Positions 9,741-24,595 of a stretch of DNA of 34,356 nt are shown here, one piece after another (position 1 is the first letter of the stretch; each line of letters starts with the position of its first letter). Below the pieces are notes generated by a model. It made no database searches, was not told the origin of the DNA, and saw only the letters and a program-made list of their open reading frames with translations. A program made the translations under genes and the position numbers. Source of the DNA: a virus; the IMG/VR virus record IMGVR_UViG_3300044640_001380, positions 1 through 34,356 of that record. One strand, 5' to 3'.

Positions 9741-10382
9741 TTATGCGCCGCCTGTAAAATAAAACCGTGCGTGAAGCTCCGGTCGGTTCGCGAGTAGCCA
9801 CGGCTCCGCGTCCTCGTAGCACCGCTGTGCGTCCTGCCCGCAGGTCTGGCTTCCGACGTGGTGAACGTAGGCGCGCGAGATGAAATGCCGCCGCTTCATG
9901 TCGAGGCATTGCACGTCGTCCGAGAACCAGTTGATCGGCGGGAAATCAACCCACGCGTCGCGGTGAATCCACGCGCAAATCGGCGCGATGACCGGCGTCT
10001 CGACTATGTGCCGCTCGGATTGGTAGCGCAGGAAGTCGATTTTCCCGCGCCCGCTGCGCACGTTCTGCTCGCCGCGCGCGTAGTCCGAGCGCGTCGCGAC
10101 GTAGCCGAGATCAGGCACGACCTTGCGCAGATGCGCGACGTCCGCGAGTAGCAACGCCCACGTCGTCGGCGTGAACACGATGTCATCGTTGCAAATCAGA
10201 ATCTCGTCGTGCCGCTTGAAGGCTTCGCGCGCGGCGAAGTTGTAGGCGTCCCCGAAGTTCGTGCCGACCTTGTGATGCACATACCTCTCGACGTCGCGCG
10301 GGACGTAGGCGTTCAGCGACGCCGTCATGACATTGAGGCACGCGCCGTTGACCGTGCAAACGATGATTGCTGGCGTGCTCAC
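9741..10382 (-). CDS. GT-A fold glycosyltransferase-like protein (213 aa)
   Basis: Starts with GTG at 10382, overlapping the previous stop as GTGA. The reading 'VSTPAIIVCTVNG' gives a clean first beta strand. A helix (FGDAYNFAAREAFKRH) leads to strand 'EILICNDDIVF' with an NDD metal/sugar-nucleotide motif at about 65-67, and later 'NWFSDDVQCLDMKRR' could hold the catalytic acid. This is the layout of GT2-type, GT-A glycosyltransferases. It is probably co-expressed with the larger glycosyltransferase before it. It may modify virion protein or host surface sugar; the target is unknown. Confidence 0.75.
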   Translation of the reverse strand: MSTPAIIVCTVNGACLNVMTASLNAYVPRDVERYVHHKVGTNFGDAYNFAAREAFKRHDEILICNDDIVFTPTTWALLLADVAHLRKVVPDLGYVATRSDYARGEQNVRSGRGKIDFLRYQSERHIVETPVIAPICAWIHRDAWVDFPPINWFSDDVQCLDMKRRHFISRAYVHHVGSQTCGQDAQRCYEDAEPWLLANRPELHARFYFTGGA

Positions 10383-11764
10383 GGCTTTTTCGCCCCGAGG
10401 ATTTCTTTGACGTTCTCGGCGTCGATGAGCGTCACGCCGCTTGCAATCACGAGCTTGTCCCAGTCGTGCGGCGGGACCATGCCGTCCTCGATGTGCACCG
10501 AGATCATCGCGCGCTCCACGGCTCGCGGTTGCCCTACGTCGTGGATGAACTGCTTCGACATTGCCATCGTCTCCTTGTCGTCGGGTCGCACAAGGAAAAC
10601 GTGCTCGACGGTTTCCGGTTGCGCTGCCGTCCCGAGCCACGCCTCGCGAAATGACACCGAGCGCGTCGAGTCGCCGAGGGTTTTCTGCGTGAGCCGAATC
10701 GCGGGCTTTTCGTGCTTGTGGAACGCCCACTGGAGCCCGTCCGCCTTTCTCGGCTGGTCCGCGAGCCGGTAGGAACGCGCGGCGAGATCGAGACCGGCCC
10801 AGCCATACCACTTCACCTCGTGCGTCCACGGCCTTTCCTTCTCCTTCGGCTCCGGTAGCGCAAGCATCCGCTCAGCCCAGAAGCTCGCGCGGCGCCCGTC
10901 GTTGCGCTCGAAGGCCAGCATGATAACCGACGCGATGGCCTCGCGGCACCACGGGAAAACCCCGTGCGCACCGAGCGCGAATTGCAAAGCCTCGCGCCGT
11001 GACGCGACGAGCCGCGCAAGGTTCAGTTGCACTTCGTATCGAAACGAGTCGTCGAGGTTCGGGAAGGAAAGCGCGATGCGGCCGAACTGCTCGGCGGCGG
11101 TCTTGTTGCCCGCGCAATAGTGTTCCTGATGGATGTAAAAATACTGAGTCGCCGACTCCGCGACGCTTCGCCCGAGGATTGCGAGGTTGCGCTTGCGGTT
11201 GCTCTGCTTGATCGCGACCGGCTGATGCCGCCAAACCGGCACCGTCCACTCGTTGTGAAGATCGTTCGGGAGCAACAGCAGGTTTTCGTGGACGTCGTGG
11301 TGCCAGACGCGCCCCGAGGCGAACGCTGCGCGGCGGATGATTCGCTCGCGTTGCAACTTCTTGCCGGTGCCCCGCACGTCGTAAGGGCATCGCAGCATGA
11401 GCACGTCCTCGGTAAGCTCCTTGAGCCTTTCCCGCAGGTCCGTCGCATCGGTCAGCACGTCGTCGCAGTCCGCCCAAAGAAGCCAATCGCCGGTGCCTTG
11501 GGCGAAGGCTTGGTTCCGAGCCCTCGCGAACGAATCAACGTGCCGCCACGCCTGCGCAGTGACCCCGTTGCGGTAGTCCGAAAAGACAATCGGGACCGCG
11601 TTGCGCTCGCACCATTCGCGCGCGAGCTGTTCGGTGTCGTCCGGTTCCTGCGAGCCGATGGCGCGCACCAGTGAGAGTTCGTCGATGATGCCGACGAACG
11701 AATCGAGCATGGTTCGTATGTGCGCGGTCTCGTTACCGGCAATCACGCAGAGGGAAATTGTCAT
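10379..11764 (-). CDS. Family 2-type glycosyltransferase with long C-terminal region (461 aa)
   Basis: The N-terminal GT-A domain opens 'MTISLCVIAGNETAHIRTML', contains 'FARARNQAFAQGTGDW' (79-94) and the metal-binding 'WADCDD' at 97-102, as in GT2 enzymes that use nucleotide sugars. The central region (about 200-330) is helical and TPR-like. The C-terminal 130 residues (about 330-461) look like a separate small domain. It is the first gene after the capsid terminator and starts after AACACACAAC without Shine-Dalgarno. Two glycosyltransferases between head and tail genes suggest modification of the virion. Alternatively they change the host envelope. Confidence 0.85.
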   Translation of the reverse strand: MTISLCVIAGNETAHIRTMLDSFVGIIDELSLVRAIGSQEPDDTEQLAREWCERNAVPIVFSDYRNGVTAQAWRHVDSFARARNQAFAQGTGDWLLWADCDDVLTDATDLRERLKELTEDVLMLRCPYDVRGTGKKLQRERIIRRAAFASGRVWHHDVHENLLLLPNDLHNEWTVPVWRHQPVAIKQSNRKRNLAILGRSVAESATQYFYIHQEHYCAGNKTAAEQFGRIALSFPNLDDSFRYEVQLNLARLVASRREALQFALGAHGVFPWCREAIASVIMLAFERNDGRRASFWAERMLALPEPKEKERPWTHEVKWYGWAGLDLAARSYRLADQPRKADGLQWAFHKHEKPAIRLTQKTLGDSTRSVSFREAWLGTAAQPETVEHVFLVRPDDKETMAMSKQFIHDVGQPRAVERAMISVHIEDGMVPPHDWDKLVIASGVTLIDAENVKEILGAKKP

Positions 11765-19883: not shown

Positions 19884-21674
19884 TCAGTCTTTGACCGGCG
19901 TGTAACGCACGACGTTGGCAATCGTCGCCATGCAGAGCATCATCGCCGAGGTGTCGAGCCCGTGATTCGGCGCGTTGCTCTTTACCTCGCGCCACTCCCA
20001 GACGCCGGTGCGGATCTCCACCTTGGATTCGCCCTTGAGGTGTTCCAGATAGAGCGGATTGACGTCGGCCGGTAGGAGCCACTTGAGATCGCCCTTGGCC
20101 TCCAGCGCGTTCGCCAAGAGGTCCTTGAAGTAGTCGCCCGACCAGTCGTAATAATAGACATCCCCGCCTCGGTAGTCGCTCACGCGCGGCTCCGAGAACG
20201 GGAAGTTGATGAGCTTGTCGCTCGCGTCGTCCTTCATCGTCCATGTTTTGCGCGCGTGTCCGCGCATCCCCCTCCAACCGAAGTCCGCGCAGTCGCGGTC
20301 CACGTCAGCCGGTCGGTAACCGCGATCTTGAGCGACGCACGCGTCCTGCACCTTGTAGCGGTATTGCATCTGCCGAAGCTGGTCCCGCGTCTCGATGCGC
20401 CCGAAGTAAAGCTGCTTGTAGGTCGGCCCCGTTGCCGAGGAGAACGCGCCGATTTCAACCCACCAGTGATCTTGCTGCCGGTCGATCGACATGAACCGGA
20501 TGAGCTCGCCGTCGATGCCCTCGCCGTTGGAGAACTGCGCGACGGTGTAATCGGATTTCGTGACGAAGAGGTTCACGACCTTTTTCTCCACGATCCACGG
20601 CCTCGCTTCGCGCTTCGTCCGAAACTCGATCTTCATCTTATCATCACCCTGCCGCACGTGGTGATTGTCGGCCTCGCAGAATTCTTCGACGAGTAGCCGC
20701 ATCGGCCGGCTGACGACCGCCTCCACGCGGAAGCTCTGGATCTCCGACGGCGCGGTCGGGTTCATTGGCACGAAGCGACCGGCGCGCTTCCACCCGTTGC
20801 GCGTCGTGTCGGTGTCTGGTGACTCATGGCCGCAGTGAGGGCACCGGAAGCGGCACGAGGCGACCGCCCGCGGCACGTCCCACGTCTCGTCATCTCGCTT
20901 CGCCGCGGCATCCCAGACCACTCCGCCCCGCAAGCCGGTGTCCTCGTTCTTGTCCAAGGCGAAGGCGATAGGGTGAACTTTGCGGCACGACGGACATTCC
21001 GTGCTCCACTCCTGCTGGTTCCCTTGGCGGAAGGATGTGTCCTCTACGTTGCCGGTTTCGAGGTCCATGATCGGAGCCTGCGAGGTGTTGTAAATTTTCG
21101 ATCGCCCGACCTCCTCGAAGCGAGAGACGCGGGCGACGGCATGGCCATAGGGCTCCTGCCACTTTGGGAGCCATATCTCGTCATTTATTTTCCACCTGAT
21201 CGACTGCGATTGCTGGCTGGAAATGTTCGCAGGATTGAGCAGGAAAAAGAATCCGCCGAAATAAATCTCGGTCGTCGTCCGGTTCGGCCCGACGCGCGGG
21301 AGCATCGCCGCCACCGGCTTGCAGCCCTCGAAGATCGGATTGAGCCGCGACTTTGCGTGCCGGTCGATCATCTCGTCGGTCTGCATCGTCCATGAGATCG
21401 GCCCCGCGTCGTTGCAGATGAGCCACGGCACCCAGATGTCAGCGACGAGCGTGCCGCCGATCTGGACGGCTTTGCGAAAGTGCACGCGACGCACGAGCGG
21501 ATTTTGCAGCGCGTCGAAGATCGGAATCAGCCACGGCGAAATTTTGACGTTGAATGGACCTGGCGTCGCGTAGCTCTCCGGCAGAATGATATGCTTGCGC
21601 GCCCACTCGTAGATCGGCGAGCGGTCGGGCTGCGGCAGGCGCAGGGTTGCGCAGAGGAGGTCGGAGGCGGTCAC
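19884..21674 (-). CDS. Terminase large subunit (gpA-like, 596 aa)
   Basis: The lambda gpA-type DNA-packaging motor and nuclease. An N-terminal 'YEWARKHIILPESYATPGPF' (22-41) is the usual opening. The Walker A-like loop is 'RKAVQIGGT' (67-75) and acidic Walker B-type residues are in 'WKINDEIW' (161-168). Zinc-binding Cys pairs are at 227/230 and 278/281, and a nuclease Asp is in 'SIDRQQDHWWVEI' (about 396-408). I start at GTG 21674 because it overlaps the RHH gene's stop as GTGA. The longer ATG form at 21893 would run through that gene in another frame. Confidence 0.92.
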   Translation of the reverse strand: MTASDLLCATLRLPQPDRSPIYEWARKHIILPESYATPGPFNVKISPWLIPIFDALQNPLVRRVHFRKAVQIGGTLVADIWVPWLICNDAGPISWTMQTDEMIDRHAKSRLNPIFEGCKPVAAMLPRVGPNRTTTEIYFGGFFFLLNPANISSQQSQSIRWKINDEIWLPKWQEPYGHAVARVSRFEEVGRSKIYNTSQAPIMDLETGNVEDTSFRQGNQQEWSTECPSCRKVHPIAFALDKNEDTGLRGGVVWDAAAKRDDETWDVPRAVASCRFRCPHCGHESPDTDTTRNGWKRAGRFVPMNPTAPSEIQSFRVEAVVSRPMRLLVEEFCEADNHHVRQGDDKMKIEFRTKREARPWIVEKKVVNLFVTKSDYTVAQFSNGEGIDGELIRFMSIDRQQDHWWVEIGAFSSATGPTYKQLYFGRIETRDQLRQMQYRYKVQDACVAQDRGYRPADVDRDCADFGWRGMRGHARKTWTMKDDASDKLINFPFSEPRVSDYRGGDVYYYDWSGDYFKDLLANALEAKGDLKWLLPADVNPLYLEHLKGESKVEIRTGVWEWREVKSNAPNHGLDTSAMMLCMATIANVVRYTPVKD

Positions 21675-21853
21675 GCGATCAGGTGGAGCACCCACGTCGA
21701 AAACGCTTCGCTCTGACTCATGCCGCGAGCTTTGCACCAAGCGCGAAACCGCGCCGCGACTTGTGGACGGAGGCGCACCGTCACGCCGACGGCCCGCTGG
21801 TCGGGCGGGAGGGGCTTGCGGCCTGCGCCTTTGCGTTTGCCGCCGGCGGTCAT
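21671..21853 (-). CDS. Ribbon-helix-helix (CopG-like) protein (60 aa)
   Basis: Begins MTAGGKRKGAGRKPLPPDQ, a basic tail, then a strand 'VGVTVRLRPQVAARFRAW' and two helices with 'GMSQSEAFSTWVLHL'. That is the ribbon-helix-helix DNA-binding fold; AGRKPL...TVRLRP is common in phage and plasmid members. It is coupled by GTGA to the terminase. It could help in packaging-site recognition or repress the packaging genes. Confidence 0.78.
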   Translation of the reverse strand: MTAGGKRKGAGRKPLPPDQRAVGVTVRLRPQVAARFRAWCKARGMSQSEAFSTWVLHLIA

Positions 21854-22059
21854 GCGATGCGGAGGCAGTCAGGCGGAAAGCAGAACCGGCCATTGCCCGA
21901 AGGCTGGCGCGATACCACTACTTGGCCCGCGTTGTAGGGCATGTTTGGGGTTGCGCTCCAGATGTAGAGCGTTTGTCCGATGAGCTTAGTCGTTCCATGC
22001 TCGCGGGTGGTTTCTTTTATTACGACAGCTTTGACTGGGATTTCTTTGGTTGAGGTCAT
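21850..22059 (-). CDS. Hypothetical small protein (69 aa)
   Basis: Starts MTSTKEIPVKAVVIKETTRE, beta-rich, with 'IGQTLYIWSATPNMPYNAGQ' and a final 'FCFPPDCLRI' that carries two Cys. No family recognised. The gene follows a 69-base AT-richer gap (22060-22128) that could hold a promoter, and overlaps the RHH gene by ATGA. Confidence 0.68.
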   Translation of the reverse strand: MTSTKEIPVKAVVIKETTREHGTTKLIGQTLYIWSATPNMPYNAGQVVVSRQPSGNGRFCFPPDCLRIA

Positions 22060-22336: not shown

Positions 22337-22966
22337 TCACTCCCTCGACCTGTCCAACGCCTCGCCCTCGAACGTCGCGATATTCGCGTTCACGACTTCG
22401 CGGATCTCGCTCAGAATCACGCCGCCCTCCACGTTCAACTCCGCCGCGTTCATCCCGACGCCGCGCGGCCCTAGCTCGACTTCGAGCTTGAGGCGCAGGA
22501 GCAGGTTGAGCTTTTGGCCCAGCGTGACGAGCATCGCCTCGACGACTTCGCGGTCGATCACGTCACCGGCTTCGCGCTCGTTCTTGCTGCGGGCGAGGCG
22601 GATTTGCTCGCGCATGAGCTCGGCTTTGAGCTCGGCGAGGTTCTTCGTCGCCACGTCCTTCCCGATCACGTTCTCCGCGCAAAACTGCTGCCACGCTGCA
22701 AGGTTCTCGCGGCGTCCGTCCTCGTGCTTCTTCGGTGCGTCGGGGAATCGGTTGCGCGCGTCGTAGATCGCTTGGCGGGAAAGGCCGAGTTCCTTCGCGA
22801 GCGTGCTCAGGTCCTTCACCCAGCCGTCGAGCTGGCCGGACTGGAAATCGTTCAGCGCCTTGCGCTCCGAGGTCGTCAGCGTCTTGCCGGCCTTGAGTTT
22901 TACCGCGATGTTCTGGACGTTGCGGCGCGCGAGGATTTCGGACGGGGTTTGCTCGGCGTCGGTCAT
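22337..22966 (-). CDS. Terminase small subunit (Nu1-like, 209 aa)
   Basis: Helical DNA-binding protein. The centre has a helix-turn-helix 'LSTLAKELGLSRQAIYDARN' (about 54-73) followed by a proline-containing loop, and a long Lys/Glu/Arg-rich coil 'ELKAELMREQIRLARSKNER'. This is the architecture of small terminase subunits that recognise the packaging site and form a ring. It overlaps the glycosyltransferase gene by ATGA and lies three small genes away from the large subunit, more separated than in lambda. Confidence 0.76.
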   Translation of the reverse strand: MTDAEQTPSEILARRNVQNIAVKLKAGKTLTTSERKALNDFQSGQLDGWVKDLSTLAKELGLSRQAIYDARNRFPDAPKKHEDGRRENLAAWQQFCAENVIGKDVATKNLAELKAELMREQIRLARSKNEREAGDVIDREVVEAMLVTLGQKLNLLLRLKLEVELGPRGVGMNAAELNVEGGVILSEIREVVNANIATFEGEALDRSRE

Positions 22967-23826
22967 GGCTTCTTGTGCGTGTCATCTAGGATTTTCGGCA
23001 CTGCGTTATTCCAAGTAATTTTATGGTGCAATCTGCCCATTGCCTTCTGCGCCGTTACCTTCACAAAGGATGGGCAGGTGATGACACCGTAAAAGCTCTT
23101 AACGTAAGTTCCGCTGACGAGGTAAGCGTCCGCCATCCCTCCGCCTTCTTTTTGGGTTATTAGCTGATGCAGGTGGAAATCCGGTAACGTCATAAATAAC
23201 TGCCCGCGCTGACCGTGACACAAGTATGTATTCACGTCCTCATTAAGTCGGCTGAAGAACCAGAGACGGCGCGAGGTCTTGCAGAAAAACGAGTTCATCG
23301 CCTTTCGCTTATGCCAAGGAAACCTGTTTCCTTTCACTATCTGGCTGTTTTCTCCGCCCATTAAATCTCCGCCTTGGGCCATGCATACCGTCATTATTCT
23401 CTCATCGCAATCCATGAAGCTAACGTAAGAAGTGAAAACCGCATTCAGCGATTCAGGAACCTTGTCGATGTATGCGCCCGCTCGGTTAAACGTGAAGTTG
23501 AACTGAAAGTAATCATCATCCAAAACAAGAAAGTATTCAAAGTTGTGCTCCTTCGCCAAATCAAAGCAGGCGTTGCGTGCGTGCGTCGTCGTCCTGCGGT
23601 TCTGGAAGTTGTCACACGAATCTACAAGCGAAGCGTAGTGCGGCTTGTCGAAAACTAGCACCATGTCCGCCCCGTGATTCTTGCGGTATTGGTCAATGGT
23701 CTTGTCCTCGTTGTCGCAGACAATGAATAGTGGTCCGGTGTAGCCGCGCTTTTTTAGTGTTCGCAACGTCACCACCTTGTCTGCTCGTCCGTGGCTGATG
23801 ATGAAAACGCAGAATGGTTTATTCAT
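22963..23826 (-). CDS. TET-associated-type glycosyltransferase (TAGT-like, 287 aa)
   Basis: GT-A-like protein with first strand 'CVFIISHGRADKVVTLRTL', then 'GPLFIVCDNEDKTIDQYRK', and the metal-binding 'YFLVLDDDYFQF' around 96-107 preceded by 'THARNACFDLAKEH'. This is the layout of the phage TAGT/GREB1-related glycosyltransferases, which in other phages are linked to modified DNA bases. It overlaps an upstream ParB-like gene, a known partner. No thymine/cytosine hydroxylase or hydroxymethylase is in this genome. ATG at 23826 gives an 8-base overlap; a start three codons earlier (23835) is possible. Target unproven. Confidence 0.76.
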   Translation of the reverse strand: MNKPFCVFIISHGRADKVVTLRTLKKRGYTGPLFIVCDNEDKTIDQYRKNHGADMVLVFDKPHYASLVDSCDNFQNRRTTTHARNACFDLAKEHNFEYFLVLDDDYFQFNFTFNRAGAYIDKVPESLNAVFTSYVSFMDCDERIMTVCMAQGGDLMGGENSQIVKGNRFPWHKRKAMNSFFCKTSRRLWFFSRLNEDVNTYLCHGQRGQLFMTLPDFHLHQLITQKEGGGMADAYLVSGTYVKSFYGVITCPSFVKVTAQKAMGRLHHKITWNNAVPKILDDTHKKP

Positions 23827-24595
23827 CGGCGCCATCCTCCGCGCCTTCGCCGCCCTGCTCGCTTTCGAGCGCGTCCGCGATCTCGGCCTTTAGCTTCACG
23901 TAACCGAGCTGCATTGCTTTCTTAAAGTCGATAATGACCAGCGCGGAATCCTCCATGAGCGCCTGCGTCTCCTTGTCCGCGTGGCAGTAAAACTCTGCGA
24001 TTTTGCCGTAGTCGAAAACGATATGACGGGCGGCGGCAGTCTTCAGAAATCGCTTCACCTCCTCCGGTGCCTTTGATGCCTCAATCTTGCTCAAGAGGTC
24101 ATCGGCTCGCTCGCTGTTGAATAACTCGATGACAGGAGGCTTCTCGCCCTTCGGCTCGTAAACGGGCGCGTCCACCTTGTGCGTGTAATCGTCGCTGAGA
24201 GTTGAGGCGACCAATGAATCGAAATCGCTTTTACTGTAACCAATTGAAGCAAGGTCAAAACCGCCGTCCTTCAGTGACCGCAGAACTTCCCCCAGCTTGT
24301 CCTCCTCCCACTCCGCCAGCTCCGCCGTCCGGTTGTCAGCAATCGCGAACGCCGTCGCCTCGACGCCCGCCAGTTCGGTCCGCACGATCTGAATCTCGGT
24401 CCAGCCGAGTTCCTGCGCGGCGGTGAGCGTTCCGTTGCCGGCGAGTACGATGCCTTTCGCGTCCACGACGATCGGCTTTTGCTGCCCGAATTTGCGCAGG
24501 CTGGCTTTGATCGCGTCGAGGTTTCGGCGCGAGTGTTTGCGCACGTTGCTTGGGTCGAGCGAGAGGTCGGCTAGCGCGATGGTTTGGTGGTTCAT
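23819..24595 (-). CDS. ParB/Srx-fold domain protein with C-terminal region (258 aa)
   Basis: The N-terminal ParB-like domain (about 1-100) has 'LSLDPSNVRKHSRRNLDAIK', 'FGQQKPIVVD' and the phosphate-binding loop 'VLAGNGTLTAAQELG'. The second half contains 'RHIVFDYGKIAEFYCHADK' and 'EDSALVIIDFKKAMQLGYVK', a segment I associate with phage ParB proteins placed next to glycosyltransferases. The end is acidic (EQGGEGAEDGADE). ParB-fold proteins can be CTPases, nucleases or kinase-like; which one applies is unclear. The gene starts after a G-rich non-coding region. Confidence 0.8.
   Translation of the reverse strand: MNHQTIALADLSLDPSNVRKHSRRNLDAIKASLRKFGQQKPIVVDAKGIVLAGNGTLTAAQELGWTEIQIVRTELAGVEATAFAIADNRTAELAEWEEDKLGEVLRSLKDGGFDLASIGYSKSDFDSLVASTLSDDYTHKVDAPVYEPKGEKPPVIELFNSERADDLLSKIEASKAPEEVKRFLKTAAARHIVFDYGKIAEFYCHADKETQALMEDSALVIIDFKKAMQLGYVKLKAEIADALESEQGGEGAEDGADE

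What the first reader, a model, noticed from the sequence alone, without database searches (positions are those of the whole stretch)
22963..24595. ParB-like plus TAGT-like glycosyltransferase pair without any visible base-hydroxylating enzyme
TAGT-type transferases beside ParB-fold genes are known from phages that hypermodify DNA, normally with a TET/JBP-type oxygenase or a hydroxymethylase to make the acceptor. Here neither is recognisable, nor a methyltransferase. Either an unnoticed gene makes the acceptor, the host does, or the pair modifies something else. Their location just ahead of the terminase genes hints at an action on packaged DNA.
Basis: partly seen in the sequence, partly recalled or inferred. 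Interest (0 to 1): 0.72.

Follow-up and report, generated by a model that had tools for sequence, protein, structure and literature searches.

The report
ParB-guided phage DNA glycosyltransferase cassette
A sugar-transferring enzyme and its dedicated ParB-like partner, encoded just before the DNA-packaging genes of many viruses (including a common E. coli prophage), probably put sugars on viral DNA, although no known enzyme that normally prepares DNA for sugar attachment is present.

Summary
Confirmed: 23819-24595(-) encodes a ParB-fold protein and 22963-23835(-) a TAGT (PF20691, E 2e-34), overlapping each other and the terminase small subunit gene. No TET/JBP, hydroxymethylase or methyltransferase was found in the window.

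New here: (1) The ParB carries a ~105-residue all-helical C-terminal domain (CTD) that matches no Pfam family. All 213 TAGT loci with visible upstream DNA have it next to TAGT (163 fused to ParB_N, 50 alone); all 79 loci found from the CTD side have TAGT. (2) ParB_N+CTD pairs lie before terminase (133/163); CTD-only pairs do not (4/50) and often lie beside DNA polymerase A or a beta clamp. (3) Six phages of bacteria and an archaeon share only TAGT and this ParB. C5-methylase 0/45; hydroxymethylase/TS 1/61, an ordinary TS; T6, the control, keeps its hydroxymethylase gene beside a CTD-less TAGT. (4) In near-identical surroundings a sister Lactobacillus prophage has ParB_N-DNA methylase instead; mycobacteriophages have ParB-DpdA. 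(5) Some cassettes add nucleotide-sugar, radical-SAM or second TAGT genes. (6) The E. coli version lies in the Rac prophage (887/5,426 genomes).

Best reading: late DNA glycosylation of viral DNA; acceptor and sugar unknown.

The parts
23819..24595 (-). ParB-like protein, 258 aa (ParB_N domain plus TAGT-partner C-terminal domain)
   Evidence: phrog_620 E 9e-47; AF2 model pLDDT 87.4; PDB fold matches to ParB-CDP 6sdk, Noc, KorB, sulfiredoxin, SerK
24242..24595 (-). ParB_N / sulfiredoxin-fold domain, residues 1-118; the usual R of the GHGR motif is T56 here (GNGT)
   Evidence: Conservation in 56 homologues: R in 48, T in 4; optional domain, absent from 50 of 213 relatives
23891..24199 (-). C-terminal domain (CTD), residues ~133-235, all-helical; obligate TAGT partner, no Pfam family
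   Evidence: Invariant Y137, P144, Y146, R190, Y203, E215, D223 in 56 homologues; no Pfam match; 79/79 CTD loci have TAGT
22963..23835 (-). TAGT glycosyltransferase, GT-A fold, 290 aa (probable true start ATG at 23826)
   Evidence: PF20691 E 2.2e-34; phrog_842; AF2 pLDDT 89.0, pTM 0.89; GT-A/GT2 fold neighbours
23512..23520 (-). DDD (DxD-type) metal/nucleotide-sugar motif, D106-D108
   Evidence: Invariant in 47/47 aligned homologues
23236..23244 (-). NED motif N198-E199-D200; D200 is the candidate catalytic base
   Evidence: D200 47/47, E199 and N198 46/47; catalytic role inferred from the GT2 fold
23023..23034 (-). R-x-H-H motif R268-H270-H271
   Evidence: R, H, H each 44/47; role inferred
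22337..22966 (-). Terminase small subunit, 4-nt overlap with TAGT
   Evidence: phrog_57 E 3.8e-7; ATGA overlap
19884..21893 (-). Terminase large subunit, GpA type
   Evidence: PF05876 E 1.5e-23

Best explanation
The two genes form a late DNA-glycosylation cassette. Inferred mechanism: TAGT is a metal-dependent GT-A transferase that moves a sugar from a nucleotide-sugar donor onto viral DNA; the CTD is its obligate subunit, docking it to its carrier or substrate; ParB_N, a CTP/ATP-binding clamp-type domain, loads or spreads the complex on DNA that is not at a replication fork, so it sits in the packaging operon and acts shortly before or during packaging. In CTD-only relatives encoded in replication modules, the replisome would take over ParB_N's role. 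The modification would hide viral DNA from restriction or other defences. No phage-made hydroxymethyl pyrimidine appears to be needed, so the acceptor is either an ordinary DNA position or one not yet recognised. Shown: the genes, domains, active-site motifs, obligate CTD-TAGT linkage, terminase/replication split, lack of shared acceptor genes, purifying selection in the E. coli version. Inferred: DNA as substrate, role of each domain, timing, purpose. Unknown: sugar and acceptor. Probability: DNA is the substrate about 0.75; DNA is the substrate and no phage-made hydroxymethyl base is used about 0.6.
For: Obligate partnership: 163 ParB_N+CTD, 50 CTD-only, 13 contig-edge, 0 without, among 226 distinct TAGT loci; reciprocally 79/79. 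Only shared genes among window, E. coli 666R9, L. gasseri jlb1, L. delbrueckii c5, archaeal HHTV-2 and a Porphyromonas phage. Packaging versus replication: terminase within 2.5 kb in 133/163 versus 4/50 (Fisher p 1e-21; genomes are related, so p is only indicative), 16/50 CTD-only beside DNA_pol_A or beta clamp; ParB_N gained or lost at least 4 times on the TAGT tree. Exchange with known DNA modifiers at the same site: jlb1 and Lj771 share 86% DNA in the terminase region and 77% through ParB_N, but one has CTD+TAGT and the other an N6/N4 DNA methylase between; KayaCho has ParB + DpdA-like TGT + terminase. DpdB is a ParB-like ATPase used in DpdA base insertion (PMC12839542) and ParBc accompanies CmoX carboxymethylcytosine genes (PMC12783734). 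Known TAGT activity: T6 TAGT adds a second glucose to DNA-bound glucosyl-hmC (PMC13216743, PMC13390438). Donor-side genes in some cassettes: UDP-Galp mutase, epimerases, CTP- and NTP-transferases. No hydroxymethylase/TS except one ordinary TS, with T6 hydroxymethylase as positive control; no C5 methylase, 0/45. dN/dS about 0.1 in E. coli.
Against: No chemical data. The T6 TAGT works on a DNA-bound sugar, which this phage should not have, so function cannot simply be copied from T6. GT-A fold neighbours include wall-teichoic-acid and protein transferases. DNA of some carriers may be restriction-sensitive; I found no open data either way. The TET search never rang in any control. Survey loci are the best matches to the queries used and many are fragments, so the 100% linkage holds for this TAGT lineage, not all PF20691: T6 and Aeromonas phage 65 have TAGT without CTD. 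One short TAGT, Ld17, has no partner.
Confidence: 0.62

Rival explanations
1. Protein glycosylation: TAGT with its CTD partner glycosylates a virion or packaging protein (terminase, portal, capsid), and ParB_N only brings the enzyme to the packaging complex.
For: Terminase neighbourhood; GT2 fold neighbours include SunS-type peptide transferases and collagen galactosyltransferases; two other GT2-like genes lie among the head-tail genes of this window.
Against: The terminases next to the pair belong to several unrelated types (Terminase_6, GpA, TerL) and the six compared phages share no structural protein, so no common protein substrate exists; CTD-only forms sit in replication modules; the allelic replacement in Lj771 is a DNA methylase.
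Confidence: 0.13
2. Classical hypermodification with a missed acceptor: an unrecognised phage or host enzyme makes a hydroxylated base (5hmC, 5hmU or other) and TAGT glycosylates it as in T-even phages.
For: All previously characterised TAGT activity that I found is on DNA carrying 5hmC-derived sugars; TET search lacked a positive control; some cassettes contain a radical SAM enzyme that could prepare the acceptor (21 loci).
Against: No gene other than TAGT and ParB is common to the six phages; hydroxymethylase/TS fold absent except for one ordinary TS, C5 methylase 0/45; radical SAM is not in most cassettes and not in this window; carriers infect E. coli, lactobacilli and haloarchaea, which have no known common hydroxylated base (own knowledge).
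Confidence: 0.17
3. The pair acts on a host glycan, lipid or free nucleotide, for example for superinfection exclusion or nucleotide-sugar depletion.
For: Phages often carry serotype-converting transferases (own knowledge); sugar-nucleotide genes accompany some cassettes.
Against: No membrane segment is evident in either protein; obligate ParB/CTD partner; replication or packaging location; mutual exchange with DNA-modifying enzymes.
Confidence: 0.06
4. ParB is a true partition or nuclease protein of a plasmid-like prophage and TAGT is an unrelated passenger.
For: Database names ('ParB-like partition protein', 'ParB nuclease').
Against: The domain that makes up the protein's second half never occurs without TAGT in the loci examined; it replaces the rest of a partition protein; GHGR arginine replaced in this copy; no ParA partner was noticed among the neighbours.
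Confidence: 0.02

Closest known systems
T-even TAGT (beta-glucosyl-HMC alpha-glucosyltransferase of T2/T6, PF20691)
   Same: Same Pfam family and GT-A fold; T6 TAGT found by the same profile (E 1.4e-10).
   Different: T6 TAGT lies beside dCMP hydroxymethylase (T6 22.4-23.5 kb), acts after alpha-glucosyltransferase, and T6 has no CTD; here there is a CTD/ParB partner and no hydroxymethylase.
DpdA-DpdB (7-deazaguanine insertion into DNA; also mycobacteriophage ParB + DpdA-like pair)
   Same: ParB-superfamily protein paired with a DNA base-modifying enzyme, in KayaCho directly ahead of terminase (PMC6392294, PMC12839542).
   Different: Enzyme is a TGT-fold base exchanger, and KayaCho's ParB lacks the CTD (W11 no match).
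Phage ParB_N-DNA methyltransferase fusions (phrog_498; Lactobacillus Lj771)
   Same: Homologous ParB_N; same site between activator and terminase as in jlb1.
   Different: Catalytic domain is a methylase fused to ParB_N; no CTD, no TAGT. The Lj771 copy is frameshifted within ParB_N.
CmoX/CmoY carboxymethylcytosine cassettes with ParBc protein (PMC12783734)
   Same: ParBc protein of unknown role in the neighbourhood of a phage DNA base modifier.
   Different: Different modifying chemistry; presence of the CTD there was not tested.
Solitary TAGTs of PMC13216743 (288 of 753 phage genomes with GT homologues)
   Same: That paper notes TAGTs without alpha- or beta-glucosyltransferase as potentially novel transferases.
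   Different: The passages I read mention no ParB/CTD partner, terminase/replication split or accessory genes.

Membership tests
TAGT (PF20691) | Profile match above curated cut-off | tested here: met
   119.6 bits versus 27.5
TAGT (PF20691) | GT-A fold with DxD-type motif intact | tested here: met
   AF2 pLDDT 89 and GT-A PDB matches; DDD 47/47
TAGT (PF20691) | Sugar transfer onto a DNA-linked acceptor | not testable with these tools
   Needs LC-MS or in vitro assay
T-even hmC glucosylation pathway | dCMP hydroxymethylase in the genome | tested here: not met
   PF00303 absent in window and relatives except one ordinary TS in Vibrio pv27; T6 hydroxymethylase detected as control
TET/JBP hypermodification system | TET/JBP oxygenase encoded with TAGT | tested here: inconclusive
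   0 of 48 and 0 of 28 records, but the profile rang in no control; C5 methylase that would supply 5mC absent in 45/45
ParB/Srx superfamily | ParB_N fold | tested here: met
   PDB fold matches to ParB-CDP, Noc, Srx, SerK; profile hits to Noc and Spo0J
Chromosome/plasmid partition ParB | Partition-protein C-terminal part and a partition context (ParA, parS) | tested here: not met
   C-terminal half is the TAGT-partner CTD; no ParA noticed among neighbours; parS not searched
DpdB | ParB-superfamily partner of a DpdA enzyme | tested here: not met
   Partner is TAGT; no TGT in the window
DpdB | ATPase activity | not testable with these tools
   Needs biochemistry

The most novel reading that the evidence does not exclude
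CTD-TAGT attaches sugars directly to an ordinary position of unmodified DNA (for example an exocyclic base amine, or a DNA end made at packaging), a DNA chemistry of which I know no example, used by viruses of bacteria and archaea and by a Rac-type prophage of about one in six complete E. coli genomes.
Probability: 0.27. Interest if true: 0.88.

Novelty: new variant of a known kind. Interest (0 to 1): 0.63.

Why it matters
It would define a large family of DNA glycosylation systems that do not use hydroxymethylated pyrimidines, explain what ParB-like proteins do beside phage DNA-modifying enzymes (a loader shared by methylases, deazaguanine inserters and glycosyltransferases), and give a function to the unexplained ynaK gene of the E. 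coli Rac prophage, which in K-12 is an 87-residue remnant of this ParB with the glycosyltransferase and terminase deleted. Because 887 of 5,426 complete E. coli genomes carry at least 80% of the pair, the acceptor question can be tested in a laboratory E. coli strain.

Tried and rejected
Partition role for ParB (no ParA noticed, different C-terminal half). A phage-encoded acceptor enzyme shared by carriers (proteome comparison of six phages; family searches). Vibrio pv27's PF00303 hit as a hydroxymethylase: it has the TS-type PFN motif, so I read it as an ordinary TS. Radical SAM as the general acceptor maker: in 21 loci of this survey and not in the window; its own search also returned phages where it has no ParB/TAGT nearby. 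PDB sequence search gave nothing for TAGT. A scan with the L122 TAGT alone found nothing. No sign of a plasmid-borne pair (a relative's TAGT found nothing in PLSDB). Literature: the Iyer 2013 and Burke 2021 papers, which I remember as the main TAGT sources, are not held, so I could not check whether a ParB-TAGT-terminase link was already proposed there; searches for ParB + glycosyltransferase + hypermodification, ynaK, HHTV-2 and Lactobacillus carriers gave nothing relevant.

Full report
OBSERVATION. The window is an IMG/VR virus record (34,356 bases, linear, no host) with all its main genes on the minus strand: replication/recombination genes (RusA, RecT-like, exonuclease VIII-like, DnaC-like), then ParB, TAGT, terminase small and large subunits, portal, head and tail genes. 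TAGT at 22963-23835(-) is a clear PF20691 member (119.6 bits, cut-off 27.5). The upstream ORF 23819-24595(-) is phrog_620 'ParB-like' (E 9e-47). TAGT overlaps ParB by 17 nt (8 nt if the second ATG is used) and TerS by 4 nt, so the three genes look translationally coupled. A 177-bp gap precedes ParB. No TET/JBP, TS-fold or methylase gene is found in the record.

THE PAIR IS WIDESPREAD AND OBLIGATE. tblastn finds 37 phage records with a TAGT relative and 24 with a full-length match to the ParB; those 24 all appear in the TAGT list. ParB-TAGT lies before terminase in an E. coli lambdoid phage, lactobacillus phages jlb1 and c5 (in c5 ParB starts 79 bp after the cos site), Nocardia NTR1 and a Porphyromonas phage; in archaeal HHTV-2 terminase follows about 3 kb later. 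Scans of viral and genome contigs gave 226 distinct TAGT loci: 163 with ParB_N+CTD directly upstream, 50 with only the C-terminal domain, 13 cut by a contig end, none without. A search started from the CTD gave 79 loci, all with TAGT. The CTD has no Pfam match, is modelled as five helices (residues 162-247) and holds the residues invariant across 56 homologues (Y137, P144, Y146, R190, Y203, E215, D223), whereas in ParB_N only one glycine is invariant. So the CTD, not ParB_N, is TAGT's constant partner. The lineage is limited: T6 and Aeromonas phage 65 TAGTs have no CTD, and the short TAGT of Lactobacillus phage Ld17 has no partner.

TWO GENOMIC HOMES. With ParB_N the pair is followed by a recognised terminase in 133 of 163 loci; without ParB_N in 4 of 50, but 16 of 50 lie beside a family A DNA polymerase or a beta-clamp-like gene (Fisher p 1e-21, only indicative because genomes are related). 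The TAGT tree needs about 12 gains or losses of ParB_N, at least 4 on well-supported branches, so the association with packaging has arisen repeatedly. I infer that ParB_N replaces the replisome as the way to reach DNA. T4 alpha-glucosyltransferase has been suggested to work in association with the replisome (PMC13216743).

WHY DNA. First, the only TAGT activity I found described is DNA sugar extension in T2/T6 (PMC13216743, PMC13390438). Second, a natural exchange: jlb1 and Lj771 are 86% identical over 3.9 kb from TerS on and 77% identical through ParB_N, but between them jlb1 has CTD+TAGT and Lj771 an N6/N4 DNA methylase (PF01555 E 4e-27). Third, mycobacteriophage KayaCho has ParB, a DpdA-like tRNA-guanine transglycosylase and terminase in the same order; DpdB is a ParB-like ATPase for DpdA (PMC12839542; PMC6392294), and ParBc proteins accompany CmoX (PMC12783734). 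That ParB_N proteins serve several DNA modifiers is thus partly known; that TAGT belongs to the set, through a separate CTD, is the inference here.

NO ACCEPTOR ENZYME. Phages of E. coli, two lactobacilli, a haloarchaeon, Porphyromonas and this window share only TAGT (6 of 6) and this ParB (5 of 6 in the automatic ORF set; the archaeal one is annotated and aligned). C5 methylase: 0 of 45 records, control positive. Hydroxymethylase/TS: among 61 records of CTD-TAGT carriers and Ld17 only Vibrio pv27, an ordinary TS; the same search finds T6's 246-residue gene at 23.0-23.5 kb, read here as its dCMP hydroxymethylase, right beside T6 TAGT. N6/N4 methylases in 8 of 45. TET: 0 of 76 but no control rang, so that absence is not proven.

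CATALYSIS AND DONOR. TAGT is modelled with high confidence as GT-A (pLDDT 89.0, pTM 0.89), nearest to GT2-type enzymes. DDD is invariant, NED and RxHH nearly so. Some cassettes carry overlapping or adjacent genes for UDP-galactopyranose mutase (L122), UDP-xylose-synthase-like SDR or other epimerases (L112, L213 and relatives), CTP- and NTP-transferases (L077, L218, L214), CofD (L214), another glycosyltransferase (L229), radical SAM (21 loci), and 24 loci have two to five TAGT-matching ORFs. This fits activated-sugar chemistry whose product differs between phages.

SELECTION AND REACH. Among close E. coli TAGTs dN/dS is about 0.1. The E. coli version sits in the Rac prophage next to trkG; its ParB is annotated ynaK. 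1,575 of 5,426 complete E. coli genomes match and 887 hold at least 80% of the pair. In K-12 only an 87-residue ynaK remains, without TAGT or terminase.

CONCLUSION. The best reading is a late-acting DNA glycosylation cassette that does not use phage-made hydroxymethyl bases. The substrate, sugar and benefit remain untested. Limits: survey loci are the best hits to the queries used, many are contig fragments, database neighbours are not functional proof, and two key older papers could not be read.

Noticed in passing
window 10379-11764(-) and 9741-10829(-): Two further GT2-like genes between head and tail genes (PF00535 E 7.5e-8, phrog_13126; and a weak PF00535 match), giving this phage three putative glycosyltransferases.
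   Followed up: partly
E. coli K-12 NC_000913.3 1425377-1425640 (ynaK), L137: YnaK is an 87-residue remnant of the ParB_N half of this family; the CTD, TAGT and terminase are deleted in K-12 Rac but present in many other E. coli.
   Followed up: yes
L099, L102-L104, L138-L145, L151-L157, L159: A radical SAM family (CxxxCPYC) in one operon with CTD/ParB and TAGT, in varying gene order; in L146, L148 and L158 the same enzyme sits among head genes without TAGT nearby.
   Followed up: partly
L172, L104, L154, L157 and 20 other loci: Tandem TAGT copies (two, in L172 five matching ORFs) behind one ParB/CTD, suggesting stepwise building of a longer glycan.
   Followed up: no
L140, L142 (4577-5998): TAGT fused behind a P-loop-like N-terminal domain (GPSCAGKTS), between ParB and radical SAM.
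   Followed up: no
L214 2845-5285: A CofD-like protein and a MobA-like nucleotidyltransferase lie within the CTD-TAGT cassette, so the transferred group may not always be a plain sugar.
   Followed up: no
L126 5980-7169 (Lj771): The ParB_N-methylase that replaces CTD+TAGT in the sister prophage is frameshifted inside ParB_N.
   Followed up: partly
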